A DNA stretch of 52,837 nt, from the IMG/VR virus record IMGVR_UViG_3300044213_000047, positions 1-52,837 of that record; one strand, written 5' to 3'. This DNA comes from a virus. This document shows, piece after piece, positions 9,047 through 39,892 of the stretch; the first letter of the stretch is position 1; every line of letters begins with the position of its first letter. Position numbers and translations under genes: made by a program. The notes beneath the pieces are model-generated. The model saw nothing but the letters and a program-made list of their open reading frames with translations, had not been told where the DNA came from and did no database searches.

Positions 9047-9290
9047 CTTTCAAAATTGGATCATCAGGATGTTGTTCCTTCATATCCTTTAAGAATGAAA
9101 CTAGTTTATCAAGAACTGTGAACCCAACAACTTGTGGGATTATAGCATGGATCAGCATGGCGATTGACCATACGAACAATGATACAGAAAATTTAATTGC
9201 CCAGAACATGTGTTTAAAGTAGAACCATCTGCTACTTGACAGTCTAGAATACTTCTGGGCTTTTTCTAAATGGTCTTTATATAATTTCAT
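9015..9290 (-). CDS. small membrane protein, DUF6356-like
   Basis: The 91-residue protein has a basic N-terminus, one or two hydrophobic helices (FSVSLFVWSIAMLIHAIIP) and a charged end. The HAIIP block recalls small membrane proteins annotated DUF6356, though this is from memory. It overlaps the methyltransferase gene by 4 nt. Confidence 0.6.
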   Translation of the reverse strand: MKLYKDHLEKAQKYSRLSSSRWFYFKHMFWAIKFSVSLFVWSIAMLIHAIIPQVVGFTVLDKLVSFLKDMKEQHPDDPILKDVHFDNERNT

Positions 9291-14965: not shown

Positions 14966-15759
14966 TATTCGTGTCTCCAATAATCTTTCTGCGTAGTAAT
15001 ATCCTCTAAGACAGCATCCCAGAACTCAATTCTAGCGTCAATCGCCTCAAGTGCTGCCTGTTCTGCTTCGTGGATTTTTACTGGATCATGTTCACATAAA
15101 GTCTCAACCAAATAGATTGAAGCTGGTCCATGTTCGTCACCATCTAATTCAATGTGTCTTTGTAGATAGTAATGAAATTTTGGACAATCATGGTTAACCA
15201 AGTTTAACGTATTAGCTATATTTGTGAACATAGTTGGAATAGATGTCTCTCGTCCAAAACAAAACGCTGCAGCAACCACATGTGGTTTACCTGTTTCGAT
15301 AAACTTAAATGTTTTTTCCATAAACCTTCTACTTGGATATGGAACACTGGCATTTTCAAGAGCATAACGAAACCCATTATTCGTTACAGTTTGAATGAAA
15401 CTCTCAAATTCTCTGCCATCCGCCCCAATTTCCAACATTGCTTGAGCGTATAGATCATGGTGTGAAATTGTACCAATACCATCAATATCAATATCACTTT
15501 CTTCTCCAGTCACAATATCATTAATCGTCCTTGCTAATCCCGAACGAATCCATTTATTTGGAACCCAACAAGTTGTACTTGGGCAGATTTCATGCTGAAG
15601 GGTTTTTAACAGCGACATGAAATCCCAGACAGCATAAACATGTCTTTCCATAAACATCTGAAGTGAAGTTATGTCACAGAGAATCTTATCATTGTTTAAA
15701 AGTGGATGATTATACAAAACCCTTCTTCTTTCTTCAATTTTCCTTAATGGTAATTTCAT
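14965..15759 (-). CDS. DUF3050 protein, haem-oxygenase-like fold
   Basis: The start chosen (MKLPLRKIEERRRVLYNHP) avoids the tRNA just upstream. The 264-residue helical protein follows DUF3050 closely: FMERHVYAVWDFMSLLKTLQ, ISHHDLYAQAMLEIGAD and LQRHIELDGDEHGPAS. The His, Glu and Asp residues in these helices are placed like the metal ligands of haem-oxygenase-like diiron oxidases (HDO). HDO enzymes often work beside radical SAM or 2OG enzymes in small-molecule pathways, and here the next gene is radical SAM with a TAATG overlap. Product unknown. Confidence 0.82.
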   Translation of the reverse strand: MKLPLRKIEERRRVLYNHPLLNNDKILCDITSLQMFMERHVYAVWDFMSLLKTLQHEICPSTTCWVPNKWIRSGLARTINDIVTGEESDIDIDGIGTISHHDLYAQAMLEIGADGREFESFIQTVTNNGFRYALENASVPYPSRRFMEKTFKFIETGKPHVVAAAFCFGRETSIPTMFTNIANTLNLVNHDCPKFHYYLQRHIELDGDEHGPASIYLVETLCEHDPVKIHEAEQAALEAIDARIEFWDAVLEDITTQKDYWRHE

Positions 15760-15772
15760 ATAATCCTTATTT

Positions 15773-15846
15773 TGGAGCGGATAGGGGAAATCGAATCCCA
15801 CTCTGCGCAGCTTGGAAGGCTGGCGACGCACCTCACGCTTACCCGC
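15773..15846 (-). tRNA. tRNA-Gly(TCC)
   Basis: The acceptor GCGGGTA/TATCCGC pairs fully, CCA is encoded, and the loop CTTCCAA gives anticodon TCC. C27:C43 and the outer T-stem pair are mismatched. Confidence 0.8.
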
Positions 15847-18857: not shown

Positions 18858-18934
18858 TGGTGCGTTAGACAGGAATCGAACCTGCTTCAGTCTGGTTTAG
18901 AATCAGCTACCCTTACCAAGTGGGCTACTAACGC
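18858..18934 (-). tRNA. tRNA with anticodon CTA (possible amber suppressor)
   Basis: GCGTTAG/CTAACGC acceptor, D stem GCCC/GGGT, T arm GCAGG-TTCGATT-CCTGT, A73 and CCA are regular. Counting from base 26, the anticodon arm is GCTGA-TTCTAAA-CCAGA, placing CTA at 34-36, which reads UAG. Only three central pairs hold the stem (27:43 and 31:39 mismatch). The neighbouring tRNA-Cys has the same mismatch pattern, which supports the register. Confidence 0.65.
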
Positions 18935-25374: not shown

Positions 25375-26264
25375 TAAAAATCCTCCAATTCGTCAAGCAA
25401 CAAGCGACATTTGTTTTCTATCAAATAACTCATAATAGACATTTTATCACCAGTTGTTTTATAATTAACATACGTATCTACGATTTCTTTTGATACATCC
25501 TCAGGTATATATTCAAAATCAATTAAGAGTGTATTGCGTTGCCAGTTACGACGCTCATCATCATTCTTACAAGCAATAAAACCATTCTCAATAAACTCTT
25601 GAAGACGTTTAGCTGATACAGGTTTTTGTCTCTCCCCAACAACAAACACATCATCTTTACTAAGAATGTTTGGAATTCCATCGTCACCTGCTTTCACGAT
25701 ATGAGTAATTTTCTTCTCGTGAAGTTCTTTAGCTGTGACTTTAATTTGTTTCTTCTGCATAGGTGACCATTGAGAAACATTGCTATATTTTTGTAGCTGA
25801 ATGAAGTCACCATCAGATGAAAGAATCAAAACTTTTTGTGGTTCCTCAACTAAACCTTGCTGAACTAGCCCATTTGTCTGAGTCCACTTAGCCATAACTG
25901 CAATAACATCATCAGCTTCAGCACGATCAAGGTGAATAACCTTATATGAGAAATACTTGGCAATGTCTTCACGCATTTCTGACAGGGTATCAAAGATCAA
26001 AGTCCAATCCAAATCAGAGTTCTCACGTGCTTTCTTTCGACCTGCCTTGTAGTGCGGGAACACTTCACGACGCCAATACTTGCGTCCATCACAACAAATA
26101 ACAAGTTCCCCATACTCTTTACCATACTTCTTCTTGTATGATTTAAGAGTGGACAGAGTTACATGTCGAATCAGATTCTTAATTTCTGACTCACTACCTT
26201 TCAACTCTCGCTGAAACGATAGAATGTTGCTTAGGGCAACTTGGGAATAATCAACTAAAATCAT
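25374..26264 (-). CDS. rnh: T4-type RNase H (5'-3' flap exonuclease)
   Basis: The 296-residue protein begins MILVDYSQVALSN and has CDGRKYWRREVFPHYKAGRK, DRAEADDVIAVMA, SSDGDFIQLQKY and KAGDDGIPNIL. These are the acidic metal-binding clusters of the FEN/T4 RNase H family. It removes RNA primers from lagging-strand fragments, working with the phage primase at 48161 and polymerase. Its ATG overlaps the upstream stop (TGATG). Confidence 0.93.
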   Translation of the reverse strand: MILVDYSQVALSNILSFQRELKGSESEIKNLIRHVTLSTLKSYKKKYGKEYGELVICCDGRKYWRREVFPHYKAGRKKARENSDLDWTLIFDTLSEMREDIAKYFSYKVIHLDRAEADDVIAVMAKWTQTNGLVQQGLVEEPQKVLILSSDGDFIQLQKYSNVSQWSPMQKKQIKVTAKELHEKKITHIVKAGDDGIPNILSKDDVFVVGERQKPVSAKRLQEFIENGFIACKNDDERRNWQRNTLLIDFEYIPEDVSKEIVDTYVNYKTTGDKMSIMSYLIENKCRLLLDELEDF

Positions 26265-27379
26265 CAAAATGCTCCAAGCAAAATTGTTTCTTCATTGAAT
26301 CGACCATTCGGTACTGCTGGTTTTGTTTTCAGTGTTTTCAATGAAGCATTAAGTGCACGTTTACCGAAAGAAAGGTTCTTAAAGAATTCCTCAGGTTTAC
26401 GTAGCGTAAATTGTTTAGACTCGGCAGTGTCGAAGCCAACAATGGTTGTTCCCTTCACAGCCAGAGTGTTACCGTTAGTTCCCTTGTATACACCAACACG
26501 GCGATACTTCGTATTATAGAACCAAACCTCAGTTGAACCAATAATGTCAGTCAGTGCTGCGGATTTCAGTTTTAGTTCTGGGAATTCCTTCATGACTTTC
26601 ATTTTAGCAACCTGAACACCAGCTGGTTTCTCTTTACGCTTGCGTGGCATACGAGTTGCTTTAGCAGTTTGAACTGCTTGATTACAGTCAGCAATAATGG
26701 TATCGATGAACTCAGCGAACTTCTTCAGCTCTCGCTTTGTGAAGTTGGAGTAACCTTCCACAAGTTGCTCGTCGTCTCCAGCAATTGCTTCGTGTAGTTC
26801 TTTTGATTGTTTAACGTAGAACTCACCAATTCGTTTTGCAATTGGTGCTGCGACTTGGTTAGCGAGCAGGTAATTTTTTGCCGAGAAATCGGATTTTTTA
26901 TTTGTAACAAAGTCATCGATTGCTCCATCAATCTCACCTGCGAGTTCGTGGGCACGATCTTCCATACGTTGCTGAATTGACACAACAGGTGTAGTTGGTT
27001 GTGTATCTACAACAACCTTTTTCTTTTTGGGGATTTTTACTTTTAGTTCTTCGATTCGGTTCAGAATCCACTGTTCTTCTCGTTCCTCAAGAACTTGACC
27101 ACGGGATTTCAAACGACAAAGAACTGCCAGCTGTCGGACATCAAAGTCAGACAGATCATTGAATGTTGATACCAATCCCTTCAGATTGTTTTGAGTCAAG
27201 AAAGTGGATAACCACTTACGCTTGACCTTATCATCTTCATTGTTGTTATACCAACAGAGTGCTCTTGTTAAAGATACACGATAATCGTCACCTTCCAACA
27301 AGACTGGTTCATCACCACCCTTCATTGACGCCATGAGTTGACGTGTTTTTTCGTTACGTTTTTCAACAGATACAGCCAT
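26264..27379 (-). CDS. conserved T4-like phage protein next to RNase H
   Basis: The 371-residue protein begins with a Lys/Glu-rich helical half and has a central basic block (MPRKRKEKPAG). A beta-rich C-terminal half (VWFYNTKYRRVGVYKGTNGN, TLRKPEEFFKNLSFGKRAL) follows. It resembles a protein that regularly precedes rnh in cyanophage-like genomes. Function unknown. It is first in the transcript from the promoter at 27408, with GGAGG before its ATG. Confidence 0.75.
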   Translation of the reverse strand: MAVSVEKRNEKTRQLMASMKGGDEPVLLEGDDYRVSLTRALCWYNNNEDDKVKRKWLSTFLTQNNLKGLVSTFNDLSDFDVRQLAVLCRLKSRGQVLEEREEQWILNRIEELKVKIPKKKKVVVDTQPTTPVVSIQQRMEDRAHELAGEIDGAIDDFVTNKKSDFSAKNYLLANQVAAPIAKRIGEFYVKQSKELHEAIAGDDEQLVEGYSNFTKRELKKFAEFIDTIIADCNQAVQTAKATRMPRKRKEKPAGVQVAKMKVMKEFPELKLKSAALTDIIGSTEVWFYNTKYRRVGVYKGTNGNTLAVKGTTIVGFDTAESKQFTLRKPEEFFKNLSFGKRALNASLKTLKTKPAVPNGRFNEETILLGAF

Positions 27380-27407
27380 AGGTTCTCACCTCCAAGTTTA
27401 TAATATA

Positions 27408-27436
27408 ATTATACCCTATTTCTGAATATTTGTCAA
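27408..27436 (-). promoter_or_regulatory. sigma70-like promoter
   Basis: TTGACA (27431-27436), 17 bp, TATAAT (27408-27413). It lies across the TAG stop of the alpha/beta hydrolase gene. Confidence 0.88.
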
Positions 27437-28228
27437 GCAAAATTTAAGCATTGCTGCACGGGTCTTAGCGGACTCTTTTTCCCACATGGAGAAGTGAGTG
27501 CTGTTTAGAATCACAATTTCTTGTGTTTTTGGAAACATTTGCATGAACAAGTCAAAACCACCAGTCTTACACTCATAGTCATACTGACCACGAATCGCAA
27601 GAATTTCAGCAGTTATGTTTTCTGGATTGAACCCATTGTTACCATGATCAACCCAATAATTATTAATATCATATACAGGTTTTGCTGGAACTTTCCAAGA
27701 AGTTTTTCCAATGACATTAACGATGCGAGTTTCCCAATCAACAATTCTGTTAGGATTTGGAATCAAACGATCGCTTATTTTCTCAAGTCTGTTTGTTTTT
27801 AGTTTTTCAATACTTGTTGAAAATTCATCACCATGTTTAACATAGTAACTTTTATCATTACGAATAGAAGGGCTATGAATTATTACTTTATCGAATAACT
27901 GTCGCTCGGCTGAAATTAAAGCAACTGCTGTTGTTGTGGAGAATGCGAAAATTGTTTTACTCTCATACTCTCTACTAACGAAATTCTTTAAAAAATATTC
28001 AATCTGGTCAGCATATCCAATTCTGTCATATTGATAAAATTCTGGACTGTTACCATAACCAGCTGGATCGAACATAATAACATCAAGTCCAGATTCAAAC
28101 AACAACTGTGCGTGTGTTTTACCTTCTGGTAGTTCAAAATCCCAAAATGCTCTTGGTGATAATGACTGCCCAGGAAGTAAGAATAGTAAATGTTTATTGC
28201 TTGGATTTAGATATTCGCTTGTAACCAT
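27416..28228 (-). CDS. alpha/beta hydrolase
   Basis: The 270-residue protein fits the alpha/beta-hydrolase fold: oxyanion region LLPGQSLSPRAFWDF, FDPAGYGNS, nucleophile elbow FAFSTTTAVALI (Ser, but with Thr where Gly is usual), RGQYDYEC with the acid, and NSTHFSMWE with the catalytic His. The altered elbow makes hydrolysis likely but less certain. It follows the aminotransferase with a 22-nt overlap and ends in TAG, rare in this window. Confidence 0.8.
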   Translation of the reverse strand: MVTSEYLNPSNKHLLFLLPGQSLSPRAFWDFELPEGKTHAQLLFESGLDVIMFDPAGYGNSPEFYQYDRIGYADQIEYFLKNFVSREYESKTIFAFSTTTAVALISAERQLFDKVIIHSPSIRNDKSYYVKHGDEFSTSIEKLKTNRLEKISDRLIPNPNRIVDWETRIVNVIGKTSWKVPAKPVYDINNYWVDHGNNGFNPENITAEILAIRGQYDYECKTGGFDLFMQMFPKTQEIVILNSTHFSMWEKESAKTRAAMLKFCLTNIQK

Positions 28229-29046
28229 GATAAGGTTTCGTTATCTTCAAACATGATGTCTTCAAATTGCGTCACTCTAATTACGTCACCAGCTGTTGAT
28301 GTTAAAAACATAGCATCAACTTCTTGATGGATATCGATTGGAGAAATATCTGCCCAAATAAAGTTTACACCATTTTCAGTACAAACCTGTTCGACTTGTT
28401 TCATAACAGTACCATTAAGTCTGTTATGTTTTGGTGCATAGACAAATCCATCTTTACTAATAAACCCAACGTTGAAACCAACACCTTCAGTAATGAAACC
28501 ATCAGTTGAACATAGGATTGCGGAATCATAACCACGATCAATAGCTTCCCATTGAGCCATTGTTAAATCATTCCAAGCAAAATTCTTGTTCGCTTGTTTG
28601 ATTGAACACTCAGGAATGCGTTTGACGTTTCTTGCCAAACATACCGTTGCTTCATTTTTTGGATTGAAACCAAAATATGGTTTAATGTATGCGTAGAAAT
28701 TTGGTTTGCATGATTTAAGATCTCGAGGATTACCACTGGTTGGAACACCCCTAGTAACAGCGATCCAAACCAAACAATCTTTATACTCTGAAGAAACCTT
28801 TGCGTGAAGAACACGAAGAATTGCTTCTAGATCTTCTTTGGTATATTCTATCGGAATTCTCCAACCAACACAACTCTTCAAGAATCTATCTAAATGCGCA
28901 TCTATGTTAACAAATTCGTTATCACGAATTGCGAGAACATCATATGTGGCATCGCAGTGAATCAACCCCAAGTCTAAAATTGAAACAGACAAGTCTTTAA
29001 CACTGCAAAAGTTACCATTCGTAAATGCTGGAAAATCTTCAAACAT
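28207..29046 (-). CDS. class IV PLP aminotransferase (BCAT/DAAT-like)
   Basis: The 279-residue protein follows fold-type IV aminotransferases: LIHCDATYDVLAIRD, IDAHLDRFLKSC, IKQANKNFAWNDLTMA with the likely PLP Lys, and ITEGVGFNVGFI binding the phosphate. D-amino acid aminotransferase, branched-chain aminotransferase and aminodeoxychorismate lyase share these motifs. The substrate is not evident. It is flanked by two alpha/beta hydrolases in one overlapping string, which suggests a small metabolic module. Confidence 0.88.
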   Translation of the reverse strand: MFEDFPAFTNGNFCSVKDLSVSILDLGLIHCDATYDVLAIRDNEFVNIDAHLDRFLKSCVGWRIPIEYTKEDLEAILRVLHAKVSSEYKDCLVWIAVTRGVPTSGNPRDLKSCKPNFYAYIKPYFGFNPKNEATVCLARNVKRIPECSIKQANKNFAWNDLTMAQWEAIDRGYDSAILCSTDGFITEGVGFNVGFISKDGFVYAPKHNRLNGTVMKQVEQVCTENGVNFIWADISPIDIHQEVDAMFLTSTAGDVIRVTQFEDIMFEDNETLSWLQANI

Positions 29047-29656
29047 TCATAATCTCCATAATTTTGTTAGCCAGTTCATATCTGGCAGGTTCAATTAAAA
29101 CGTAGTGAGATCCCTGAAGATCAACAACAGTTTTGTTTTTAATAAACTTTACCTGAAGACTATTTTGTTTGTCCATTTCTGAAGAATCACTAGTGTTGAA
29201 TATTGTAACAGGACATTTTATTTTATCTAATGCTATTTGTGGCAATTTTTCATCAAGATTTAAATTTCTATTTTTGATATCATCATTCATAAGAGTAGCA
29301 AACTCAGGAATGAATTCTGTTTGTTTAGATTTATCTGGACATGGATCGAGCATGAACATATGTTTAGTTTTGTTATTTCCAATCGCACTAGCAACAGCGC
29401 AACCATAACAATATCCCATAATGTAATCAGGATTTTGTATGTTTACTAAATCTCGACACTTCTTAAAAATTGTTTGATGTGTGTCGCCTGTTTGCCAATC
29501 AACGGAAATTACGTCAATTCCAGCATTATACAAAATGTCAGCAAAACTGTCCTCTTCCATATCAAGGTCAAACATGGTTTTATATTTCCATGTTTTACCC
29601 ATTAGATATAGAAGTTTTGCTTTAGGATTGGTTGGAGTTCTGCGGCGAATTAGCAC
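29039..29656 (-). CDS. alpha/beta hydrolase with Cys nucleophile
   Basis: This 205-residue protein starts at GTG. The nucleophile elbow is GYCYGCAVAS, i.e. G-x-C-x-G with cysteine in place of serine, as in dienelactone hydrolases. FMLDPCPD and CPVTIFNTSD are strand ends, and LQGSHYVLIEP carries the catalytic His. It could cleave an acyl or lactone group. It overlaps the aminotransferase gene by 8 nt and the DsbA-like gene by 35 nt. Confidence 0.75.
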   Translation of the reverse strand: MLIRRRTPTNPKAKLLYLMGKTWKYKTMFDLDMEEDSFADILYNAGIDVISVDWQTGDTHQTIFKKCRDLVNIQNPDYIMGYCYGCAVASAIGNNKTKHMFMLDPCPDKSKQTEFIPEFATLMNDDIKNRNLNLDEKLPQIALDKIKCPVTIFNTSDSSEMDKQNSLQVKFIKNKTVVDLQGSHYVLIEPARYELANKIMEIMNV

Positions 29657-30988: not shown

Positions 30989-31010
30989 AACCCTACTTGC
31001 AAGTAGGGTT
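30989..31010 (-). terminator. terminator of curli/cyclase operon
   Basis: AACCCTACTT and AAGTAGGGTT are perfect inverted arms, followed by TTTT across the join on the minus strand. The hairpin lies 23 nt after the cyclase stop codon. Confidence 0.75.
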
Positions 31011-31032: not shown

Positions 31033-33036
31033 TTACTTCGATGTGGCTCTATATGTTCCATCCCAGTCAGCTGGTTTGCCTTCTTGCATACGTTCAACCA
31101 TGTTATCATAGTATTGCGATAGTTCTGGAGATTCAGCTTTCAGAGAATCAACCATTGCAATAGCAGCATCCCAATTTCCAGAGTAATAGTTTTCTAACCA
31201 AATAGGATGTAACGAATAAACTATTGCAGGTGTAAAAATTTTCACTCCAATCTTTTTACCTTTTACCGCAATACAATCAAGTTCTGCTACAGGATACTGA
31301 TCTTGAACATATCGTGCAGTTTGTTGTCCAAGAATGATTCGGACGCCATACGATTTACTCTGTCCTTCAAGTCTGGATGCAAGATTGACAGAATCCCCAA
31401 GACAAGTATAATCGAAACGCTGGTCGCTACCCATATTCCCAACAACAACGGTACCAGTATTAATCCCAAGACCCATGCCGAAAGGTGGCACACCCTCTTT
31501 AGTAATTTCTGAATTAAATTCATCCAAACTCTCCATCATTTGTAAAGCTGTTTTCAAAGCCATCTTAGCGTGTTCAGGTTCATCGAGTGGAGCATTCCAA
31601 AATGCCATCTGAGCATCACCGATATACTTATCTAACGTGCCATTGTTTTCTATAATTTTTGATGTCATCGCTGTCATGTAGCGATTCATAATTTGAGTTA
31701 AACCTTGAACATCTTCCCCATAGTGTTCTGATATTGAAGTAAACCCTCTAACATCTGTGAACATAATGGAAAGTTCTCTTGACTCACCACCGAGTTTAAG
31801 TAATTCAGGTTGTCGCTGTAACTTTTCGACCAGAGCGGGAGACAAGTAAGTACCGAACTGTTTTTTGATTTGAAGTTTTTGGCGCAGTTCAACAAGGAAT
31901 TTGACAATGTATCCATGGAAGCTGCAGATTCCAATGGTAAGTATCGGGAACACAGCATCAAGTAGATACTGGTGTCGTACAAACAATTCCATACCACCAT
32001 AATAGGCAACGAATCCCAATAAGATCGCGAAGATGTATCCATGAGTAAACCTCGTTAGGTAAAGTGAAAGTAACACTGCTACAATCATAAATCCTAACTC
32101 AGCGATTAAAGACCAATCTGGTCTACTGATGTTAGTGCCACTAATTACTGTGTCTAGAACCTCAGCTTGTATATAATGAGGAAATTGGGCACCTCCTGCT
32201 GTGGCGACAGGATTGTTAAGACCTTTTGCGGTAAGACCGACGATGACGATTTTTCCACCGAAGTCTTTTGGTAAATTGATGGCAGAATATTCTGCTGGTC
32301 TGCTAGTAGGGTCAACCCAAATTCTCCCGAGTTCATCGGTTTCGATTTTTCCAAGTTGAGCAATTCTGACTGCTTGGATTGCGTTGTCGTTGACTTTAAC
32401 TTGGAAACTTGGTTGTCCTGCGGCAACTCTGAGAGTTTCAAGGCTGATGCTGGGGTATAAGTTTCCATTTGCGTTGACGACCATTGGTATTCTTCTGGTG
32501 ACGCCATCGACTTCTGGCAGAGTGTTAACAACACCAATACCAGCAGCACTATTATTGAATATGGTTGGATATATCGTATCATACTTCACACCTGTATCTT
32601 TCGCATTTCCTCCGATTACTGAAACACCTGGACGGAATGGAATTACATCGGTAGTAACTTTACCTACTTCTGCTAGTTGCGGTAAAATTACTGGATTATT
32701 TTTTAATGTAGCAGCCAGCTGGCTGTCTTGATGAAACCTATCGGAATCAGGCATATAAACATTAAACACAACAAGACCAGCGTTACGTTTAAGAATATCT
32801 TCAATAATCTTTGAGTAGTCTCCTCTAGGGAACGGAAACTGTCCTTTTTGCTTAATAGTGGCATCGTCTATATTTACAACTGCCACATGTTCTGAGACAG
32901 TTGCTTCCTTTGATGTTATTAGTTGATCGAAATAACGAAGTCTGACAGACTCAACGAATGTCGGGTCTGCCAGTCGAATTACAATCATAAGCACCAATGT
33001 AACCAGTGCCATCCATGGCGATAAAAGTTTTTTCAT
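31033..33036 (-). CDS. CHASE2-domain membrane nucleotide cyclase
   Basis: The 667-residue protein has one N-terminal TM helix (about 8-22), a periplasmic CHASE2-type sensor (about 40-305: VAVVNIDDATIKQKGQFPFP, RGDYSKIIEDILKRNAGLVV), three more TM helices (about 308-380) and a class III cyclase domain (about 395-610). Catalytic residues are complete: D428 in FTDVRGFT, K470 and D474 in DKYIGDA, T544 in the DYTCLGDS block, N551 and R555 in NLASR. This pattern favours adenylate cyclase. It ends the curli operon and its ATG overlaps the preceding gene (ATGA). A phage-borne full-length sensor cyclase is highly unusual. It may change host cAMP or sense the envelope state. Confidence 0.93.
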   Translation of the reverse strand: MKKLLSPWMALVTLVLMIVIRLADPTFVESVRLRYFDQLITSKEATVSEHVAVVNIDDATIKQKGQFPFPRGDYSKIIEDILKRNAGLVVFNVYMPDSDRFHQDSQLAATLKNNPVILPQLAEVGKVTTDVIPFRPGVSVIGGNAKDTGVKYDTIYPTIFNNSAAGIGVVNTLPEVDGVTRRIPMVVNANGNLYPSISLETLRVAAGQPSFQVKVNDNAIQAVRIAQLGKIETDELGRIWVDPTSRPAEYSAINLPKDFGGKIVIVGLTAKGLNNPVATAGGAQFPHYIQAEVLDTVISGTNISRPDWSLIAELGFMIVAVLLSLYLTRFTHGYIFAILLGFVAYYGGMELFVRHQYLLDAVFPILTIGICSFHGYIVKFLVELRQKLQIKKQFGTYLSPALVEKLQRQPELLKLGGESRELSIMFTDVRGFTSISEHYGEDVQGLTQIMNRYMTAMTSKIIENNGTLDKYIGDAQMAFWNAPLDEPEHAKMALKTALQMMESLDEFNSEITKEGVPPFGMGLGINTGTVVVGNMGSDQRFDYTCLGDSVNLASRLEGQSKSYGVRIILGQQTARYVQDQYPVAELDCIAVKGKKIGVKIFTPAIVYSLHPIWLENYYSGNWDAAIAMVDSLKAESPELSQYYDNMVERMQEGKPADWDGTYRATSK

Positions 33037-33122
33037 TTACTAAACCAAATATCATATATCTGATAACAGATCGTTGGAATGAATACTATTAAAATTCCAG
33101 CAATCTGTATAGTTAATGTCAT
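33033..33122 (-). CDS. 29-residue membrane peptide coupled to the cyclase
   Basis: The peptide MTLTIQIAGILIVFIPTICY continues with a short polar end and is one hydrophobic helix. Both its start and stop form ATGA overlaps with adjacent genes, so it is almost certainly translated between them. It might bind the cyclase TM region, which is speculation. Confidence 0.6.
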   Translation of the reverse strand: MTLTIQIAGILIVFIPTICYQIYDIWFSK

Positions 33123-33349
33123 AGCGCCAACGATAGTGCTTCTGCCGCAGCAACAATAAATCTGAACGCTTGTTCATCGTTCGATAAATCTTGAGCAGCC
33201 TTTACTTGAGCAACCTGTTGAATGAGATATTGATAATCATCAGAACTTAATTCTTGGTTTTCATATTGTTGACGAATAACCAACAACTGGTTTGCTAAAT
33301 TAGCAGTAGGTCCACCCATCCCAGCAGCTTCTCTTAATTGTTCAAACAT
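33119..33349 (-). CDS. hypothetical helical protein
   Basis: With the ATG overlapping the lipoprotein stop (TAATG) the product has 76 residues, starting MFEQLREAAGMGGPTANLAN. It is helical, Gln-rich and ends in an Ala-rich helix. No family was recognised. Confidence 0.65.
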   Translation of the reverse strand: MFEQLREAAGMGGPTANLANQLLVIRQQYENQELSSDDYQYLIQQVAQVKAAQDLSNDEQAFRFIVAAAEALSLAL

Positions 33350-33699
33350 TATCGACTCCTCCAAGCATCTTCGATTACACTAACACGTGTTTTATTAATT
33401 GACAATACATCATTACACAGTATATCACTTTTAGAATTATATGCCTTTAGCAATGCTTCTTCCAACTGACTTACGTTGGTAGCTTGAGGGTCTTTTCTTA
33501 ATTCAGTATAAACCTTTAAGTGATGGACACGATCTAATAAATCACCCCAGTCTTTATTTGAACAATTAACTTGATTCAATTTAATATCGATTGAGACGAT
33601 CTGATTAAACATAACTGGATCATGATCTTTTGGCAATAAACTAGTAACAGTGGAACAACCTGTTAGGGCTAAAACTGCTGTTAATATTATTGCTCTCAT
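33349..33699 (-). CDS. lipoprotein
   Basis: The N-terminus MRAIILTAVLALTGC is a signal peptide with a lipobox and acylated C15. The remaining 100 residues are helical with two further Cys (VNCSNKDWGDLL, ILCNDVL). Its place in the operon suggests an outer-membrane partner of the secretion system or cyclase, but it resembles neither CsgE nor CsgG. Confidence 0.78.
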   Translation of the reverse strand: MRAIILTAVLALTGCSTVTSLLPKDHDPVMFNQIVSIDIKLNQVNCSNKDWGDLLDRVHHLKVYTELRKDPQATNVSQLEEALLKAYNSKSDILCNDVLSINKTRVSVIEDAWRSR

Positions 33700-33701
33700 G
33701 A

Positions 33702-34541
33702 TCAGTCATCCGATGCGTTAGCACCACACTTAGCACGCTTAGCTTTTGTTAAAGCACCGAAGTCGACTGGCCATTCTTGACCTGGAGCCAACTCTTTAGC
33801 GTTCGGTGGGAAAGCATATTTAACGCCAACCTTCTGTTCAAGCTGACCAATTTCAACACGGAACTTAGTCAAATCGTTACCCAAGTTTGGATATGGAGCA
33901 ACGTGAGGGAAATACCAAGCAGCTACTTCAGAAGTTTGATTGTTGATAACAATTTTATAGAAGCCATGAGGAACAACTACACCCTTACCAATTGTTTTGT
34001 CGCCTTGACCGTAGTCACCACCAACATAAACAGTGTAGCTCTGGTTTCGTTGAACAGTCCATCCACGAACTGAGGTCTCTAATAGTTTCCAGATTCCACG
34101 ATTCAAAGATCCAGCTTGGGGGGACATGTTTGTCATCAAAAAACTTTCAAATTCCACCTGAGGGTCCCACGATAAGTCTCCATCTGGAGCCATATGCCCT
34201 TTGTCGTATCCTGTTCCAGCGTAATCTGCGGGAACGGCTCCATTTGGTACAAATTGATTAGCAGCAAAAGCATTAGTACGAGCGACGCAGCCCAAAGCAT
34301 TTTGAGGAAGTAATTCATATGTGACAAACTTCGGTAATTTTGCTTGAGCATCATAACCAACTAGGTATGCTTGCTGGCAAAGTGGTTGAACATTATTTGT
34401 TTGAGGGAACCCATAAGGTGCATGGGCTTGGCAGTTTTGTACTGGGAATGGTTGACGCTGAGTCCAAGCATTAGCTGTGTTAAACTCTACACCAACGATT
34501 GTCCAGATAACAATGTTTAATGCAATTAAAAACTTTTTCAT
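33702..34541 (-). CDS. exported NUC1-type DNA/RNA endonuclease
   Basis: A signal peptide (MKKFLIALNIVIWTIVGVEF, cleavage near NAWA) precedes a DNA/RNA non-specific endonuclease domain. YDKGHMAPDGDL corresponds to the DRGH motif with catalytic His, and TNMSPQAGSLNRGIWKLLE supplies the metal-binding Asn. Cysteines before and after the active site may form disulphides. The enzyme should act in the periplasm or outside the cell. Within a curli operon it may degrade extracellular DNA in biofilm or incoming phage DNA. Confidence 0.88.
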   Translation of the reverse strand: MKKFLIALNIVIWTIVGVEFNTANAWTQRQPFPVQNCQAHAPYGFPQTNNVQPLCQQAYLVGYDAQAKLPKFVTYELLPQNALGCVARTNAFAANQFVPNGAVPADYAGTGYDKGHMAPDGDLSWDPQVEFESFLMTNMSPQAGSLNRGIWKLLETSVRGWTVQRNQSYTVYVGGDYGQGDKTIGKGVVVPHGFYKIVINNQTSEVAAWYFPHVAPYPNLGNDLTKFRVEIGQLEQKVGVKYAFPPNAKELAPGQEWPVDFGALTKAKRAKCGANASDD

Positions 34542-34572
34542 AACTATTCCTTTATAAGAATGACAAGTGTAT

Positions 34573-36096
34573 TTAGTTACCTTGTCTAACTGTAATTGTT
34601 CCGCACCCAGCAGAACTCGTACAAGTTTGGTTTATACTATAAACCTGACCACCAGTCTGAGTTAGGTTTAGAGATGTTGGACCGCCAGAGTTATTTAGCA
34701 CAATTGTAGCTGCATTCGATCCAGTTGCCCCAGTATTACTTTGGGATATTGTAGCGGAGTTACTATTTCCAGTCAATGTTACATCACTGAAGTGGGTAGA
34801 TGTTCCCTGTTGGGTTACGCTAAGTGTATTGCTACTACCATTTACGACGTTGAAACTTTGTTGAGGAGCTGAACCAGTCTGATAAACGCCAACGTTATTC
34901 GCATTACCAGAAATAGCAATCTGAGTGTAATTTCCAACTGTTAGGTTAGTTGTTTGTTGTTGAGTAGTTACACTGTTGGAACTACCATTAATTTGTAGAC
35001 CAAGATAGTGATGACCAGCATCAGTTCCAGTACCATTACCGTTAGTATCAGTTCCTTGATTCAAATTTAATGTATTTCCACCACCACCGAGAACATCAAC
35101 TTGCATTAAATTGTGGGTACTTGCAGTATTGTTCGGGTCGCCTTGACGCATAGTTATGTTGTTGTTACCACCACGAATAAGAACTGCGTTTTGTGTGTAG
35201 CCAGTTATTGCGTTATACTTTGTATTCTGGTTGATAGTAACTCTATCATTATTTCCGACCTGATCAATATAAATTGAATTTGATGTTATAGCATTAACAT
35301 ATGATTGATCAAGTGCCATCAACGCACTTTCAGAAGTCGTAATGCTACTTGAATATGTTGGAGCAGTGCTACCACCACCTGTATCTGGAGGTGGAGTTGG
35401 TGCACCACCTGTTCCTTGAGTAGCTTGAGGTGTGGCAGCAGCAGTGAACCCTGATGTTGTTACTGGTGTGCAGTTGAAAATGTTTGAACCAGCAGCACAT
35501 GCGCCAGCATAAACACCAATCATAATTGATGGGTTTGAATAGGAATTTGTTCCATCTGAATAGAAACTAAAATTATATGTAGTTCCAGCAGTAGCGTTAA
35601 ATCCTTGATAGATACCATCATAACTACCAACAGCACCATCAATCCAAGAACCAGAAGTTCCAGTATTAACTCCAAGTCCCGCAGTAGTTGACCCCATCCA
35701 TCCACTTCCTGGACCGTACCACATACCAGCAGCTGGTGGTGCGCCAGCTGAACTTTGATACCAAACACCCCAATCAGCTGGTGCCTGTAAACCGTATTGG
35801 CTTACATTACCGCCATATTGTAAATTTGGGTTATTTAGTAAGTTAGTCGTGCTTCCCTGCGCAGTTAGTTTGAAACTACCCACGCTCCAATATCCAGGAT
35901 CTTGACGAAACGCTAGACCGATATAATCAACACCAGTCGTTGGTGCAGTATATGAATAAGAGAATTGTTGATATATTCCAGTGGCAGTTTGATTAACTGT
36001 TCCGATATAACCAGAGGGTAGATTCTGTGCTTGTGCTCTTGGAGTGCAGAATCCAACTAACCCAGCAACGAGAAACGATAGTAATACCTTAACCAT
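34573..36096 (-). CDS. large exported protein with curlin-type repeats
   Basis: A signal peptide (MVKVLLSFLVAGLVGFCTPR, cleavage after AQA) leads a beta-sandwich-like region (about 25-200: DYIGLAFRQDPGYWSVGSFK) similar to extracellular carbohydrate-binding modules. A Thr/Gly/Pro linker follows. From about residue 255 come curlin-like units with the Q-x-G-x-x-N spacing: SIYIDQVGNNDRVTINQ, TLNLNQG, NVGVYQTG, TLSVTQQG, SLNLTQTG, TITVRQGN. It is likely an amyloid subunit with an N-terminal adhesive domain. Two Cys near the C-terminus may stabilise it. Confidence 0.85.
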   Translation of the reverse strand: MVKVLLSFLVAGLVGFCTPRAQAQNLPSGYIGTVNQTATGIYQQFSYSYTAPTTGVDYIGLAFRQDPGYWSVGSFKLTAQGSTTNLLNNPNLQYGGNVSQYGLQAPADWGVWYQSSAGAPPAAGMWYGPGSGWMGSTTAGLGVNTGTSGSWIDGAVGSYDGIYQGFNATAGTTYNFSFYSDGTNSYSNPSIMIGVYAGACAAGSNIFNCTPVTTSGFTAAATPQATQGTGGAPTPPPDTGGGSTAPTYSSSITTSESALMALDQSYVNAITSNSIYIDQVGNNDRVTINQNTKYNAITGYTQNAVLIRGGNNNITMRQGDPNNTASTHNLMQVDVLGGGGNTLNLNQGTDTNGNGTGTDAGHHYLGLQINGSSNSVTTQQQTTNLTVGNYTQIAISGNANNVGVYQTGSAPQQSFNVVNGSSNTLSVTQQGTSTHFSDVTLTGNSNSATISQSNTGATGSNAATIVLNNSGGPTSLNLTQTGGQVYSINQTCTSSAGCGTITVRQGN

Positions 36097-37214
36097 TAAT
36101 TCTGTCTCAATGTTATTATTGTGTTACCACCTTGATTAACACGATTGTGAATTGTCACTGAACCTTGTGTCTGATAGATCGAAGAGTTTTGATCTTTAGG
36201 GACAGTTACGCACTGTATATTCGAACCATCACTTCTACACAATCCAACTGTACTTGAACCAATAGTTGCAACTACACCTGTTTCCTTTTTATAATCAGGA
36301 AGAATGTTATTCTGTGGAGTCAATACGTTTTGAAGTAAAGCAGCCTGTTCATCTTGTAACTGTTGAGCCAAGATGTCAAAGATATCTGCTAAGAAGTATT
36401 GTTGTAGTAATGGTTGCGTTAAAGGATTATCACCGAATGGAGTTTGTCCACTTAATTCATCCTTTAAGAAATCTTGTTTCAAAAAATTAACTGTTAACAT
36501 ATTTCCTGAAGTATTTAACACAGTGGTCTTATTAACTTCAGACTCTTTAGTAAATTCTTTTGGTGGTGATACAATTAACAGATTATTAATAACATCAGCA
36601 GTTAAATGTAGAATAGTCGGTTTCAATGGTGGCATATTTCTTGCTGTTACTTTAGTTCCCTCGAATGGTTTATTTAGAGTCACCATCCCAGCATCTGTTA
36701 TAACATCAATGATTCCAGTTTTACAATCACGATCGATATCTACCCAAGTTTTTGGGCACGATGGTAGTAGAATGATTGTTGATGTACCAACTTCGTCAAC
36801 TGTTGCTGTGAAGTCAGTACCACGAACTGCGATAGTGGCAGTTGGTGTATTGATTGCTACTTTAGATGGGTCATTATGAGCGATAGCACCAGAAGCGTAT
36901 TTAACTGTGCCTTGCGCAAACTTCATTGCGAGTTTGCCACTCTTTGAAGATTTGGGATCATAAACGAAATCGTCAATTACCAATTTCGAATTTTCGTTCA
37001 CTTCAACTTTAGTATCATCAGCGAACGTAATACCAACCTTACCTTTGGCGGTATTAATAGTGTCGTTCATTTCGATACCAGCACCTTTCAATGCTGATGA
37101 AGATTTACCAGAACGAACAATGGATCCAGGGACGGCTACCTGTTCGGTAACTGTCCCTATCCCCGCATAACAATTAAATGATATCAAAAATAAACATAAC
37201 CATATACGTTTCAT
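36096..37214 (-). CDS. exported FecR-domain protein with curlin-like end
   Basis: A signal peptide (MKRIWLCLFLISFNCYAG) is followed by a FecR domain (about 25-170) with INTAKGKVGITFADDTKVEV and TPTATIAVRGTDF, the typical core. The central region is helical and Gln-rich. The last 25 residues (SVTIHNRVNQGGNTIITLRQ) resemble one curlin repeat, so it could dock on or nucleate the amyloid. Its ORF overlaps its neighbours by one base on each side. Confidence 0.87.
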   Translation of the reverse strand: MKRIWLCLFLISFNCYAGIGTVTEQVAVPGSIVRSGKSSSALKGAGIEMNDTINTAKGKVGITFADDTKVEVNENSKLVIDDFVYDPKSSKSGKLAMKFAQGTVKYASGAIAHNDPSKVAINTPTATIAVRGTDFTATVDEVGTSTIILLPSCPKTWVDIDRDCKTGIIDVITDAGMVTLNKPFEGTKVTARNMPPLKPTILHLTADVINNLLIVSPPKEFTKESEVNKTTVLNTSGNMLTVNFLKQDFLKDELSGQTPFGDNPLTQPLLQQYFLADIFDILAQQLQDEQAALLQNVLTPQNNILPDYKKETGVVATIGSSTVGLCRSDGSNIQCVTVPKDQNSSIYQTQGSVTIHNRVNQGGNTIITLRQN

Positions 37215-38098
37215 TAGTGTGCTTTAGTTGTAATTAAAAATGTATTGTTGCTTCCAACTGATTGCACATTTACTGTTGTGTTAGCAGTGTTTGCTTGTTG
37301 AACGATATTAGCAGTGTTACCAGAACCATTCAATGCTAGCACTGTTGTGTTAGTATAAGCACTTGTACCAGTTTGTTGAATGTCAACAGTATTGCTTGCG
37401 CCTTGAACAGTAACAGTAGCAGTACCGTTATAGTTTTGTGTTGAAGCTCCGATAGTTCCAAGGTTGATAGCTGAGTTGTTAACAGCACTACCACCAACAC
37501 CTTGATTGATCTCAACTGTATTAGTACCACCACCTGTTACGCTAACAGATTGAGTATTACCATTACCGTTTACAGTTGATAGGAAAGCATTCCCAGAACC
37601 ACCAGCAGTGGTAGCAGTTACATTATTGTTTGTTCCTAAAATGTTTACATTAGAAACAGAACTGTTACCAGACTGGTTGATTGTTAAGTTGTTACTTGCG
37701 CTGGTATTTTGACCATCGTTATTACTGTCGATAGTTGCTGTACTGTTGTTGCCAGTAACAGTATAGCTATAGTTATTACCAGTCATACCGTTAGCAACTG
37801 TTGTATTGATGCCCATATTCAAGATGTTACCAGTACCAACCTGATCAACTACAACTGATTGGTTGTTACCAGTTAAACGAACAGGAGTTGTATTACCAGT
37901 ACCAGTACCTGTTCCTTGAATACCACGAACAACGTTACCAGCACCGTCTTGAGTAACAGTCACAGTAGAGTTACTACCAGACTGATCAATGTAGATGCTG
38001 TTATCTGCAGCGTATACCATTAATGGAATTCCAGCCATTAACAGACTTGCAATTAGTTTTCTCGGCAAATTGCCAGTGCCTGTCATTCTTTTAAACAT
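37214..38098 (-). CDS. curlin-repeat protein (CsgA/CsgB-like)
   Basis: A signal peptide (LIASLLMAGIPLMVYA|AD) precedes about 270 residues almost entirely of imperfect curlin-type repeats rich in Asn, Gly, Thr, Gln: SIYIDQSGSNSTVTVTQDG, SVVVDQVGTGN, NLTINQSGNSS, TVEINQGVGGS, TVDIQQTGTSA. E. coli CsgA has five such units; this protein has roughly nine or ten less regular ones. It sits directly after csgG, so export by that channel is likely. Confidence 0.88.
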   Translation of the reverse strand: MFKRMTGTGNLPRKLIASLLMAGIPLMVYAADNSIYIDQSGSNSTVTVTQDGAGNVVRGIQGTGTGTGNTTPVRLTGNNQSVVVDQVGTGNILNMGINTTVANGMTGNNYSYTVTGNNSTATIDSNNDGQNTSASNNLTINQSGNSSVSNVNILGTNNNVTATTAGGSGNAFLSTVNGNGNTQSVSVTGGGTNTVEINQGVGGSAVNNSAINLGTIGASTQNYNGTATVTVQGASNTVDIQQTGTSAYTNTTVLALNGSGNTANIVQQANTANTTVNVQSVGSNNTFLITTKAH

Positions 38099-38100
38099 TT

Positions 38101-38901
38101 TTATTTTTCCTCTTTAGGTTTTCTGTATTCCCAGATTCCTTTGCGTTCTCCTTCTCTAATCAACTCAACGACTGCTGCTTCAACAGATGTTTTAATGGCA
38201 AGTGTTCCTGGCTCATTAATAGTTAAACCTGTTTCTGCTTCGAATAATTGTGTACCATCCTGGAATGCTTTCAACATAGCGAACGAATCTGCTGTTGAAT
38301 AGACTGTTTTAGTTACAGTTACTGTCGCTAAAACTTTACCAGTGCTTACGCTAACTGCTCGTAAACTTATAGTTACGATATCTTTACTGTATTGTGTCTG
38401 TGGTCCAATACCTAACCATCTATATGCAGCACCACCCGATTCTGTTGATGAATCATAACCGATGATGCCACCTTCCATAATAATACCTGCGAACTGTAAT
38501 GGTGCTAGAGGTCTAGCATCTTTACCTTCATATTGTGTTCTCATTTGTTGAATAATAGTTCTTTCTTTAACTAGATTATCAACGCTAACACGTTCAACTA
38601 CATCAAACCATTGACCATAGCCAACGTCTTGAAGAGCTTTAATTAAAAATGGTTCAGCACCTTGAGTTACTGCTGTGCTGAAACTGGCGTAATTGCTAAC
38701 TGCCTTACGCTGCCCTGTCATATCTTTAAATGAATATACAGCAACAGTTATTTTAGAACTGTTTGGTGGTTGAATACTATCAAATTCTTTTTGTAGTTTT
38801 GTTTGCGCAACTTCAGGTTTATATTCAACACCCATTTTTTGAGTAATTGCGCAACCACTCATTAAAGAAATCATGGCGAGGGCGAGAAGTGTTTTCTTCA
38901 T
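38101..38901 (-). CDS. csgG: CsgG-like curli secretion channel
   Basis: The 266-residue lipoprotein (MKKTLLALAMISLMSGC, acylated C17) follows E. coli CsgG along its length: ITVAVYSFKDMTGQRK, FSTAVTQGAEPFLIKALQD, FDVVERVSVDNLVKERTII, FAGIIMEGGIIGYDS, ESGGAAYRWLGIGPQTQYSK, VSTGKVLATVTVTKTVYS and IREGERKGIWEY. The constriction Phe (F56 in E. coli) is kept in SFSTA. It should form the nonameric outer-membrane pore that exports curlin subunits. Confidence 0.96.
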   Translation of the reverse strand: MKKTLLALAMISLMSGCAITQKMGVEYKPEVAQTKLQKEFDSIQPPNSSKITVAVYSFKDMTGQRKAVSNYASFSTAVTQGAEPFLIKALQDVGYGQWFDVVERVSVDNLVKERTIIQQMRTQYEGKDARPLAPLQFAGIIMEGGIIGYDSSTESGGAAYRWLGIGPQTQYSKDIVTISLRAVSVSTGKVLATVTVTKTVYSTADSFAMLKAFQDGTQLFEAETGLTINEPGTLAIKTSVEAAVVELIREGERKGIWEYRKPKEEK

Positions 38902-38902
38902 C

Positions 38903-39376
38903 TTAGTGTCCTGTCATGTTAAATTGTGCTGTCGGAATAGTAATGTTACTAGTTCCACTTGGTTGTGTTACTTGCATTACGATGTTTGTGCCAGACCACC
39001 ACCAGCTAATGCTAGTTGTTGGGTCAAACTGAAACGTACATGCAGAAGAAGATACACAGGTGCTAGAACTACCACTAAACATAGCAGTAGCAGTGTTCTG
39101 AGAAATCTGTGCGTATATTCTTGACTCAAGGTTTGTCAAGAATTGATTGATTGGTGTATTAGCAGCATCAGTTTTAGCTTGTTGGGCTGCAGCTTGAACA
39201 GCCTGATTGATTGCTTGCTGACGTGTGAATTGTTCGTTCTCAATAGTAAGAACGTATGTGCCATATCCGTTGCCAGTAAAAGCTGGAGATTTAAATGTGA
39301 AATCGTTTAGGGGTGCTGCTAGAGCGAGGTTACTGATTAACCCCAGTGCTATTGTTATCTTTTTTAGATGTGTCAT
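38903..39376 (-). CDS. csgF: CsgF-like curli assembly factor
   Basis: The 157-residue exported protein has a signal peptide ending ALAA and then NDFTFKSPAFTGNGYGTYV, matching the mature N-terminus of CsgF that inserts into the CsgG pore. INQFLTNLESRIYAQISQ and a beta-rich end (NITIPTAQ) complete the match. It is longer than E. coli CsgF (138 residues) because of a Ser/Cys-rich insertion. It is the first gene of the operon; no CsgE or CsgD is found in the window. Confidence 0.87.
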   Translation of the reverse strand: MTHLKKITIALGLISNLALAAPLNDFTFKSPAFTGNGYGTYVLTIENEQFTRQQAINQAVQAAAQQAKTDAANTPINQFLTNLESRIYAQISQNTATAMFSGSSSTCVSSSACTFQFDPTTSISWWWSGTNIVMQVTQPSGTSNITIPTAQFNMTGH

Positions 39377-39617
39377 TTTTTATGTTTCCGTTTTCGCGCA
39401 ACGATAAAATGACATTCACCTTTTGATTCAGTCTAATTAGGTCATTATCCAACATACGGATACGATCAATAAGAGCTATTAAAACATTATTTGCTTCAGT
39501 CGTTACTGGTTTAATATCTTTGGTTGCCCATTCCCATACATAAAATATGAGGTAACCCATTCCACCTGCAGCGACAATAGGGAAACCATATTTGTTAATT
39601 AATGATACAAAATCCAT
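39330..39617 (-). CDS. small membrane protein, paralogue of the next gene
   Basis: The 95-residue protein begins MDFVSLINKYGFPIVAAGGM, with one TM helix (about 10-30) and a coiled-coil-like C-terminal half (IDRIRMLDNDLIRLNQKVNV). The gene at 39617 has the same plan (MDFIKIIAEVGFPIAAAMAA, LDKRVAAMNHDVIRIDTKV), so the two arose by tandem duplication. They resemble the small membrane proteins next to lysis genes of many phages. Confidence 0.7.
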   Translation of the reverse strand: MDFVSLINKYGFPIVAAGGMGYLIFYVWEWATKDIKPVTTEANNVLIALIDRIRMLDNDLIRLNQKVNVILSLRENGNIKNDTSKKDNNSTGVNQ

Positions 39618-39892
39618 TAATCTCTCCTTGCATCTGATTGCTCTGCTCGAGCAATGCGATCTAGATCAGGAGGTATACCCAAAGCATGACTAACCTTCGT
39701 GTCAATTCGAATCACATCGTGGTTCATAGCTGCCACACGTTTATCTAAAGCTGTAATAATACCAGCCATACTCTTAACAGCTGATGTAACACCAGCCAAA
39801 ATAAACTTTAATGTTAAGAATACGAAGTACCCAGCAGCCATTGCAGCTGCAATTGGGAACCCTACTTCCGCTATGATTTTTATAAAATCCAT
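39617..39892 (-). CDS. small membrane protein, paralogue of the previous gene
   Basis: The 91-residue protein has one TM helix (about 10-32) and a helical cytoplasmic part with an Arg/Asp-rich end. It shares the layout of the gene at 39330 and overlaps it by one base. The CTAAATA box at 39928 lies about 36 nt upstream. A pinholin or membrane-scaffold role is conceivable. Confidence 0.7.
   Translation of the reverse strand: MDFIKIIAEVGFPIAAAMAAGYFVFLTLKFILAGVTSAVKSMAGIITALDKRVAAMNHDVIRIDTKVSHALGIPPDLDRIARAEQSDARRD

What the first reader, a model, noticed from the sequence alone, without database searches (positions are those of the whole stretch)
31033..39376. Phage-encoded curli (type VIII secretion) operon
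Ten consecutive minus-strand genes, joined by ATGA/TAATG or 0-4 nt junctions, encode CsgF, CsgG, a curlin-repeat protein, a FecR-domain protein, a larger curlin-repeat protein, an exported NUC1 nuclease, a lipoprotein, two small proteins and a CHASE2 cyclase, ending in a terminator at 30989. CsgG (lipobox C17, FSTA constriction, GIIGYDS and WLGIG blocks) and CsgF are directly recognisable. Curli are known as chromosomal biofilm amyloids; I know of no phage that carries the secretion channel with subunits. Infected cells may coat themselves with amyloid, which could block superinfection, aggregate neighbours for the next infection round, or hold progeny in a matrix.
Basis: partly seen in the sequence, partly recalled or inferred. 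Interest (0 to 1): 0.96.

Follow-up and report, generated by a model that had tools for sequence, protein, structure and literature searches.

The report
Phage-borne curli amyloid secretion operon
A large phage related to known ocean phages carries a complete-looking gene set for exporting curli amyloid fibres from the bacterium it infects; the gene set is real, but phages with this same set were already published in 2020-2022, so the news lies in details such as interchangeable sticky heads on one fibre subunit.

Summary
The operon is real. CsgG (E=1.8e-45), CsgF, FecR, CHASE2 plus cyclase, NUC1 nuclease and the first curlin pass Pfam cut-offs. The larger curlin is just below Pfam's cut-off, but a profile of its body hits one PDB sequence, the curlin of 8c50 (E=1.6e-12). 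Junctions are as described, except for a 31-nt gap before the nuclease. The "never seen in phage" claim is wrong: Pelagibacter phage HTVC008M and Methylophilales phage Melnitz carry CsgF-CsgG-curlin-FecR-curlin-cyclase in the same order, and three papers discuss it. I found 53 further viral contigs with it, some over 200 kb. The nuclease-lipoprotein-small-protein trio is a separate, widespread phage cassette. Related contigs with the same flanking genes lack the curli genes, so the module is an optional island, not a chimera. Details not found in the papers searched: swappable N-terminal heads on the second curlin (PA14, F5/8C, others); a FecR protein without FecR's anti-sigma architecture, resembling an adhesin anchoring domain; and one bacterial chromosome (Hyphomonas TMED17) with the five-gene module. 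Most likely it displays an adhesive amyloid coat on infected cells; function is untested.

The parts
39617..39892 (-). Small membrane protein 1 (91 aa, N-terminal TM segment plus coiled-coil-like tail); upstream partner of the module
   Evidence: Homologues beside the csg module in 24 of 56 phage loci; no Pfam family, so no sign of a histidine kinase
39330..39617 (-). Small membrane protein 2 (95 aa), 1-nt overlap with the previous gene and 47-nt overlap with csgF
   Evidence: phrog_18771 E=2e-34, weak holin hit phrog_4898 E=0.0036; present in 25 of 56 loci
38903..39376 (-). CsgF, extracellular gate/chaperone, Sec signal then FTFKSPAFTGNGY
   Evidence: Pfam CsgF E=2.1e-7 above cut-off; phrog_35372; K-S-P-x-F-x-G-x-G-Y invariant in the phage copies aligned
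38101..38901 (-). CsgG, outer-membrane lipoprotein channel (lipobox C17)
   Evidence: Pfam CsgG E=1.8e-45; aligns to E. coli CsgG structures 3x2r, 4uv3, 6si7; C17 invariant in 18 phage CsgG
37214..38098 (-). Curlin subunit 1 (294 aa)
   Evidence: Curlin_rpt 24.0 bits over cut-off 20.7; strong 11-residue periodicity in Q/G/N
36096..37214 (-). Exported FecR-domain protein: signal peptide, FecR beta domain, disordered linker (210-302), C-terminal strand domain
   Evidence: Pfam FecR E=8.6e-11; AF2 model; Foldseek hits the periplasmic anti-sigma domain 4m0h/6ovk and the cell-surface anchoring domain 5ix9
34573..36096 (-). Curlin subunit 2 (507 aa): signal peptide, N-terminal beta head (~25-245), curlin body (~270-507)
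   Evidence: Body profile hits only PDB 8c50 curlin, E=1.6e-12; AF2: 12 regular strands at 362-506, block pLDDT about 71-92; head shared with L005 and L016
33702..34541 (-). Exported NUC1 DNA/RNA non-specific endonuclease (separate cassette, not curli machinery)
   Evidence: Pfam Endonuclease_NS E=8.6e-40; 400 confirmed viral stretches, nearly all of the 80 examined without csg genes
33349..33699 (-). Small lipoprotein of the nuclease cassette
   Evidence: Lipobox LTGC by eye; follows NUC1 in L162, L163, L169, L188 without csgF/csgG
33119..33349 (-). Small cytoplasmic protein (76 aa from the ATG) of the nuclease cassette
   Evidence: Follows the lipoprotein in the same loci
33033..33122 (-). 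29-aa single-TM microprotein, ATGA overlaps at both ends
   Evidence: Translation, hydropathy; no homologue tested
31033..33036 (-). CHASE2 sensor-class III nucleotide cyclase
   Evidence: CHASE2 E=1.3e-37, Guanylate_cyc E=3.1e-22; metal-binding Asp pair, purine Lys and transition-state Arg invariant in 30 phage homologues
30989..31010 (.). Stem-loop, possible terminator
   Evidence: 9-bp stem; fold z-score -3.5

Best explanation
The operon gives the infected Gram-negative cell a phage-made type VIII secretion system. Sec exports the two curlins, CsgF, CsgG and the FecR-domain protein. CsgG forms the outer-membrane channel, CsgF caps it, and the curlins leave through it and assemble into amyloid on the surface (inferred from family membership). 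Curlin 2 carries an interchangeable beta-rich head, so the fibre would display a binding domain; the most likely role is an adhesive coat that sticks infected cells to neighbours or particles and may shield them from other phages. The FecR protein is probably a periplasmic assembly or anchoring factor rather than an iron regulator. The CHASE2-cyclase, with an intact active site, probably reports a periplasmic signal as cAMP. Shown here: gene identities, order, conservation, intact catalytic residues, head swapping, optional presence. Inferred: secretion, amyloid formation, adhesion, signalling.
For: CsgG/CsgF/curlin/FecR/CHASE2-cyclase assignments, PDB matches for CsgG and for the curlin 2 body. 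CsgF, CsgG, curlin, FecR and cyclase together in 39 of 56 phage loci, the rest mostly cut by contig ends. CsgG 41-82% identical to the window copy, with 48 invariant columns. Curlin 2 heads differ while the body is kept: PA14 in HTVC008M (E=2.7e-6) and L054 (7.7e-14), F5/8-type C in L031 (2.4e-10), a third fold family in the window, L005 and L016; PA14 and F5/8C are typically carbohydrate- or cell-binding domains (established knowledge). FecR protein: cleavable-looking signal directly before the FecR domain and no other TM segment, fold like adhesin anchoring domain 5ix9. Expression of phage curli genes in ocean metatranscriptomes is reported in PMC9599517.
Against: No expression, secretion or fibre has been shown for this phage. 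In Melnitz cultures no clumping was seen (PMC9004378), which weakens the aggregation role there. CsgE is absent from the window and from eight related contigs, so the channel may be ungated. The head of the window's curlin 2 has no Pfam match, is modelled only moderately, and Foldseek gave no significant match. Heads are absent in many loci, which have a short second curlin instead.
Confidence: 0.55

Rival explanations
1. The CsgG-CsgF pore was repurposed as a lysis-timing or pinhole device and the curlins are secondary, as proposed for Melnitz.
For: Authors of PMC9004378 propose it from synteny and from not finding csgA/B; two small membrane proteins, one with a weak holin-like hit, sit upstream of csgF.
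Against: Curlin genes are present next to csgG in at least 51 of 56 phage loci, and are annotated in both Melnitz and HTVC008M; the heads on curlin 2 make sense for surface display, not for lysis; CsgG sits in the outer membrane, where an open pore would not by itself release the lysin (established knowledge).
Confidence: 0.12
2. The coat works mainly as superinfection exclusion: amyloid (and, in this phage, the exported nuclease) blocks or degrades other phages and their DNA.
For: Surface amyloid and an exported nuclease would act at the right place; suggested for curli in PMC9599517.
Against: The nuclease cassette occurs mostly without curli and curli mostly without the nuclease in the same operon, so they are not a functional pair; exclusion needs no swappable binding heads.
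Confidence: 0.25
3. An open CsgG pore imports large nutrients or cofactors for the phage.
For: Suggested in PMC7029224 and PMC9599517; no CsgE gate in the window or in eight relatives.
Against: Does not explain conserved CsgF, two curlins or adhesive heads.
Confidence: 0.05
4. The segment is a chimeric assembly or host DNA joined to a phage contig.
For: The window is a 52.8-kb linear metagenomic virus record of unknown completeness.
Against: The same flank order (up41526-up40483-small membrane proteins-csg-NUC1-lipoprotein-cyclase) recurs in the independent contig L167, and the same flanks without csg in L188; GC and strand bias are level; no bacterial CsgG is closer than about 50%.
Confidence: 0.01

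Closest known systems
Pelagiphage/methylophage T8SS module (HTVC008M KC465899; Melnitz MZ577097; PMC7029224, PMC9004378, PMC9599517)
   Same: Gene order small membrane proteins-CsgF-CsgG-curlin-FecR-curlin-CHASE2-type cyclase on phage genomes, no CsgE found; CsgG about 42-43% identical
   Different: A different group of phages (T4-type gp23 capsid found on four related contigs of 230-357 kb); nuclease-lipoprotein-small trio between curlin 2 and the cyclase; different head on curlin 2
Alphaproteobacterial chromosomal curli loci (Sphingomonas, Bradyrhizobium, Erythrobacter and others)
   Same: CsgF-CsgG-curlin order in many, CsgG up to 47-50% identical
   Different: No FecR of this subfamily or CHASE2 cyclase within 10 kb in 79 of the 80 loci, apart from the FecR of L062, a 3-kb contig that looks like a mis-binned phage
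Hyphomonas sp. TMED17 chromosomal locus (L065, 705-kb contig)
   Same: Five-gene run CsgF-CsgG-curlin-FecR-CHASE2 cyclase; CsgG groups with phage copies (support 96)
   Different: Flanked by ordinary bacterial metabolic genes; no second curlin and no small membrane pair found; long branch, so direction of transfer is open
E. coli csgDEFG/csgBAC
   Same: CsgG and CsgF families; amyloid repeat subunits
   Different: No CsgE found; no obvious CsgB; CsgC and CsgD were not searched for; FecR protein and cyclase instead

Membership tests
Curli / type VIII secretion system | CsgG outer-membrane lipoprotein channel | tested here: met
   Pfam CsgG 155 bits against 20.8; lipobox Cys invariant in 18 phage sequences
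Curli / type VIII secretion system | CsgF | tested here: met
   Pfam 31.6 against 25.8; N-terminal KSPxFxGxGY motif invariant in the copies aligned
Curli / type VIII secretion system | Curlin-repeat subunits with export signals | tested here: met
   Curlin_rpt above cut-off for curlin 1; curlin 2 body matches 8c50 at E=1.6e-12; N-terminal signals by hydropathy and eye
Curli / type VIII secretion system | CsgE gate | tested here: not met
   No PF10627 in window or eight related viral contigs; control rings in E. coli. PMC9599517 reports it missing from alphaproteobacterial modules too, so it is not treated as decisive
Curli / type VIII secretion system | Amyloid fibre formed outside the cell | not testable with these tools
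   Needs expression and staining or EM
Phage T8SS module of PMC9599517 | CsgF-CsgG-CsgA/B-FecR-(CsgA/B)-adenylate cyclase order | tested here: met
Phage T8SS module of PMC9599517 | Histidine kinase(s) upstream of csgF | tested here: not met
   The upstream genes are 91- and 95-aa membrane proteins with no kinase family hit; probably the same genes as the published 'HK', whose name then looks doubtful
FecR-type anti-sigma iron regulator | Cytoplasmic anti-sigma domain and inner-membrane TM helix before the periplasmic domain | tested here: not met
   Signal peptide ends at about residue 19 and the FecR domain follows; no other TM segment
Class III adenylate cyclase with CHASE2 sensor | Two metal Asp, purine-specifying Lys, transition-state Arg | tested here: met
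   Invariant in 30 phage sequences; purine partner T in the window, D/T/S overall
NUC1 (Endonuclease_NS) | Endonuclease_NS domain with D-R/K-G-H active site | tested here: met
   137 bits; DKGHM in window, DRGHM in L027

The most novel reading that the evidence does not exclude
Infected cells display a phage-encoded modular amyloid fibre with swappable binding heads (PA14, F5/8C, others) on curlin 2, tethered in the periplasm by the FecR protein instead of a CsgB nucleator, with the CHASE2 cyclase reading fibre or FecR status: a phage-built, retargetable cell-capture surface.
Probability: 0.2. Interest if true: 0.78.

Novelty: new member of a known kind. Interest (0 to 1): 0.45.

Why it matters
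If the fibres form, lytic phages turn single cells into sticky, amyloid-coated ones during infection, which changes how infection spreads in dilute water. The interchangeable heads on curlin 2, apparently not discussed in the curli-phage papers I searched, make the adhesion idea directly testable (swap or delete the head). The one chromosomal five-gene relative gives a lead on where phages got, or delivered, the module. It would also correct two published labels, the 'iron regulator' FecR and the 'histidine kinase'.

Tried and rejected
(1) Curlin-like nature of the FecR C-terminus (ends ...GGNTIITLRQN, modelled as six strands): not supported by HMM search or by profile-profile comparison (prob 0.9%), so kept only as speculation. 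(2) T4-type late promoter TATAAATA: 3 in the window against 3.2 expected, none usefully placed upstream of the operon; sigma-70-like sites also at chance; timing of expression stays open. (3) Methanotroph host via AmoC/PmoC: no hit in 17 related contigs, but the control did not ring either, so inconclusive. (4) Fold search of curlin 2: no significant hit. (5) Nuclease as part of the curli machine: rejected. (6) A near DNA match of the window's right half (28000-52837) in INPHARED: none. (7) First bacterial scan with the single CsgG: nothing; it needed the alignment. (8) FecR subfamily in 249 genomes of the order of the Hyphomonas genome: only that genome has a strong match, the rest being generic FecR at 75-82 bits.
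Full report
OBSERVATION. The ten genes are there. Nine are ordinary ORFs; the tenth is a 29-residue single-TM protein at 33033-33122 that shares ATGA overlaps with both neighbours. Junction lengths were measured: all tight except 31 nt before the nuclease. Pfam supports CsgG, CsgF, FecR, CHASE2+cyclase, Endonuclease_NS and the first curlin above curated cut-offs. The second curlin is just below Pfam's cut-off (18.6 against 20.7 bits), but a profile of its conserved C-terminal body hits exactly one PDB sequence in a search of all chains at E up to 10, the curlin-repeat protein of 8c50, at E=1.6e-12 in five stretches. Its G-x1-2-N-x5-Q ladder is far above shuffles, and AlphaFold2 draws twelve regular strands (block pLDDT about 71-92) over residues 362-506. 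All PHROG hits among the csg, FecR and cyclase genes are families of unknown function, which shows that other phages carry them.

NOT NEW AS A KIND. tblastn against annotated phages finds CsgG in HTVC008M and in four Melnitz isolates at about 43% identity. Both have csgF-csgG-curlin-FecR-curlin-cyclase in the same order (in HTVC008M the FecR and second curlin are annotated 'hypothetical'). PMC7029224 reported the phage curli genes in 2020 and proposed 'sibling capture'. PMC9004378 proposed a pore role for Melnitz and saw no clumping. PMC9599517 identified the curlin subunits, FecR and adenylate cyclase in podo- and myophages, found expression in metatranscriptomes, and discussed superinfection exclusion and aggregation.

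DISTRIBUTION. One scan of IMG/VR returned 53 contigs with relatives, 42-84% identical in CsgG, on contigs up to 357 kb. Counting the window and the two isolates, 39 of 56 loci contain CsgF, CsgG, curlin, FecR and cyclase together; the others are mostly cut by contig ends. Four of the largest related contigs (230-357 kb) encode a T4-type gp23 capsid, and the window itself has nrdA, nrdB and a phage primase and 26 tRNAs. So this is the curli module in a group of large T4-type phages.

ISLAND, NOT CHIMERA. Contig L167 repeats the window's order from up41526 and up40483 through the small membrane proteins, the csg genes and NUC1 to the lipoprotein, small protein and cyclase. Contigs L188, L191 and L205 have up41526-up40483-NUC1, and in L188 also lipoprotein-small-dn30749, with no csg genes and no cyclase; other genes occupy the slot. 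The module is thus an optional insertion at a conserved place in related phages. The nuclease trio belongs to that backbone: NUC1 relatives lie in 400 confirmed viral stretches, and among the 80 loci kept it is next to csgF/csgG once. In one csg-bearing contig (3300022602_002721) a NUC1 relative lies tens of kb away from csgG (L017, L165).

ANATOMY AND MECHANISM. CsgG keeps the lipobox cysteine, the FSTAV constriction segment and 48 invariant columns across 18 phage sequences, and aligns over its length to E. coli CsgG structures. CsgF keeps an invariant K-S-P-x-F-x-G-x-G-Y stretch in the copies aligned, which corresponds by eye to the E. coli CsgF segment that inserts into CsgG (recalled from the solved complex, not tested). 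Curlin 2 is modular. The body is conserved, while the N-terminal part is PA14 in HTVC008M and L054, F5/8-type C in L031, another domain in the window, L005 and L016, and absent in the many loci with a short second curlin. Conserved fibre body plus interchangeable, typically glycan-binding heads is what one expects of a displayed adhesin, and it is the main reason I prefer adhesion over lysis timing or nutrient import. The FecR protein has an export signal directly followed by the FecR domain and no cytoplasmic part, so it cannot be a FecR-type anti-sigma regulator; Foldseek links it to the periplasmic domain of such proteins (4m0h, 6ovk) and, with a tight 1.4 A fit over 62 columns (E=0.012), to 5ix9, a 'cell surface anchoring domain' (from memory the anchoring domain of a giant ice-binding adhesin, not checked). 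A disordered linker and a confident C-terminal strand domain follow. A periplasmic tether for the fibre is a fair but untested reading; homology of the C-terminus to curlin was tested and not found. The cyclase keeps both metal aspartates, the purine lysine and the transition-state arginine in 30 of 30 phage homologues, so it is probably active. What CHASE2 senses is unknown.

ORIGIN. A scan of bacterial genomes with the CsgG alignment gave 80 loci, mostly Alphaproteobacteria. Within 10 kb of csgG, this FecR subfamily and the CHASE2 cyclase occur together only in L065, Hyphomonas sp. TMED17, on a 705-kb contig with ordinary metabolic neighbours. Its CsgG falls with the phage copies (support 96, quick tree, long branch). 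Three other 'bacterial' hits (L059, L062, L064) are short contigs that fall among phage sequences and are probably mis-binned phage DNA. Of 249 genomes in that order only TMED17 has a strong FecR match. PMC9599517 says that FecR and cyclase are not part of bacterial T8SS operons; this locus is an exception worth following, with direction of transfer unresolved.

VERDICT. Observation confirmed; novelty claim refuted by the literature and by annotated phages; function plausible and untested. New member of a known kind, with several details (heads, FecR architecture, island nature, Hyphomonas relative) that I did not find in the papers I searched.

Noticed in passing
window 18858-18934: ARAGORN calls a 'tRNA-Pyl' with a CTA anticodon among 26 tRNAs: a possible amber-suppressor tRNA. 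TAG ends only 3 of 53 ORFs of at least 120 aa on the minus strand; the ten operon genes end in TAA or TGA.
   Followed up: partly
L065 9477-15500 (Hyphomonas sp. TMED17): Chromosomal CsgF-CsgG-curlin-FecR-CHASE2 cyclase run, the only cellular locus found that resembles the phage module.
   Followed up: yes
L059, L062, L064: Short contigs in bacterial reference genomes (Rhodobacteraceae, Pelagibacter, Pirellulales bins) whose csg genes group with phage copies: likely phage contigs mis-binned into reference MAGs.
   Followed up: partly
L157 9654-13875; L163 2091-4760: At or near the site that holds curli genes in the window, related phages carry exported S/T/N-rich low-complexity repeat proteins; L163's 188-aa one resembles curlin 1 in its signal-peptide region. 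Possibly an alternative surface fibre or matrix system.
   Followed up: no
L011 14550-16565; L016 13733-15703; L036 15129-17198: Exported 640-680-aa proteins with N-terminal binding-type domains and a C-terminal beta-barrel-like end (autotransporter-like) beside the csg module; the L016 one shares its head with the window's curlin 2.
   Followed up: partly
L188 8825-12622, L167 8944-9647: IscU-like and IscA-like iron-sulphur proteins and (by eye) an LpxH-like phosphoesterase, a glycosyltransferase and a glutamine-amidotransferase-like protein recur in the same variable region.
   Followed up: no
window 26264-29656: Run of metabolic-looking genes (by eye two alpha/beta hydrolases and a class IV aminotransferase) next to the operon; elsewhere in the window a radical SAM protein at 13496-14980, a DUF3050 protein at 14965-15831 and a methyltransferase at 9287-10729. 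Possibly small-molecule biosynthesis.
   Followed up: no
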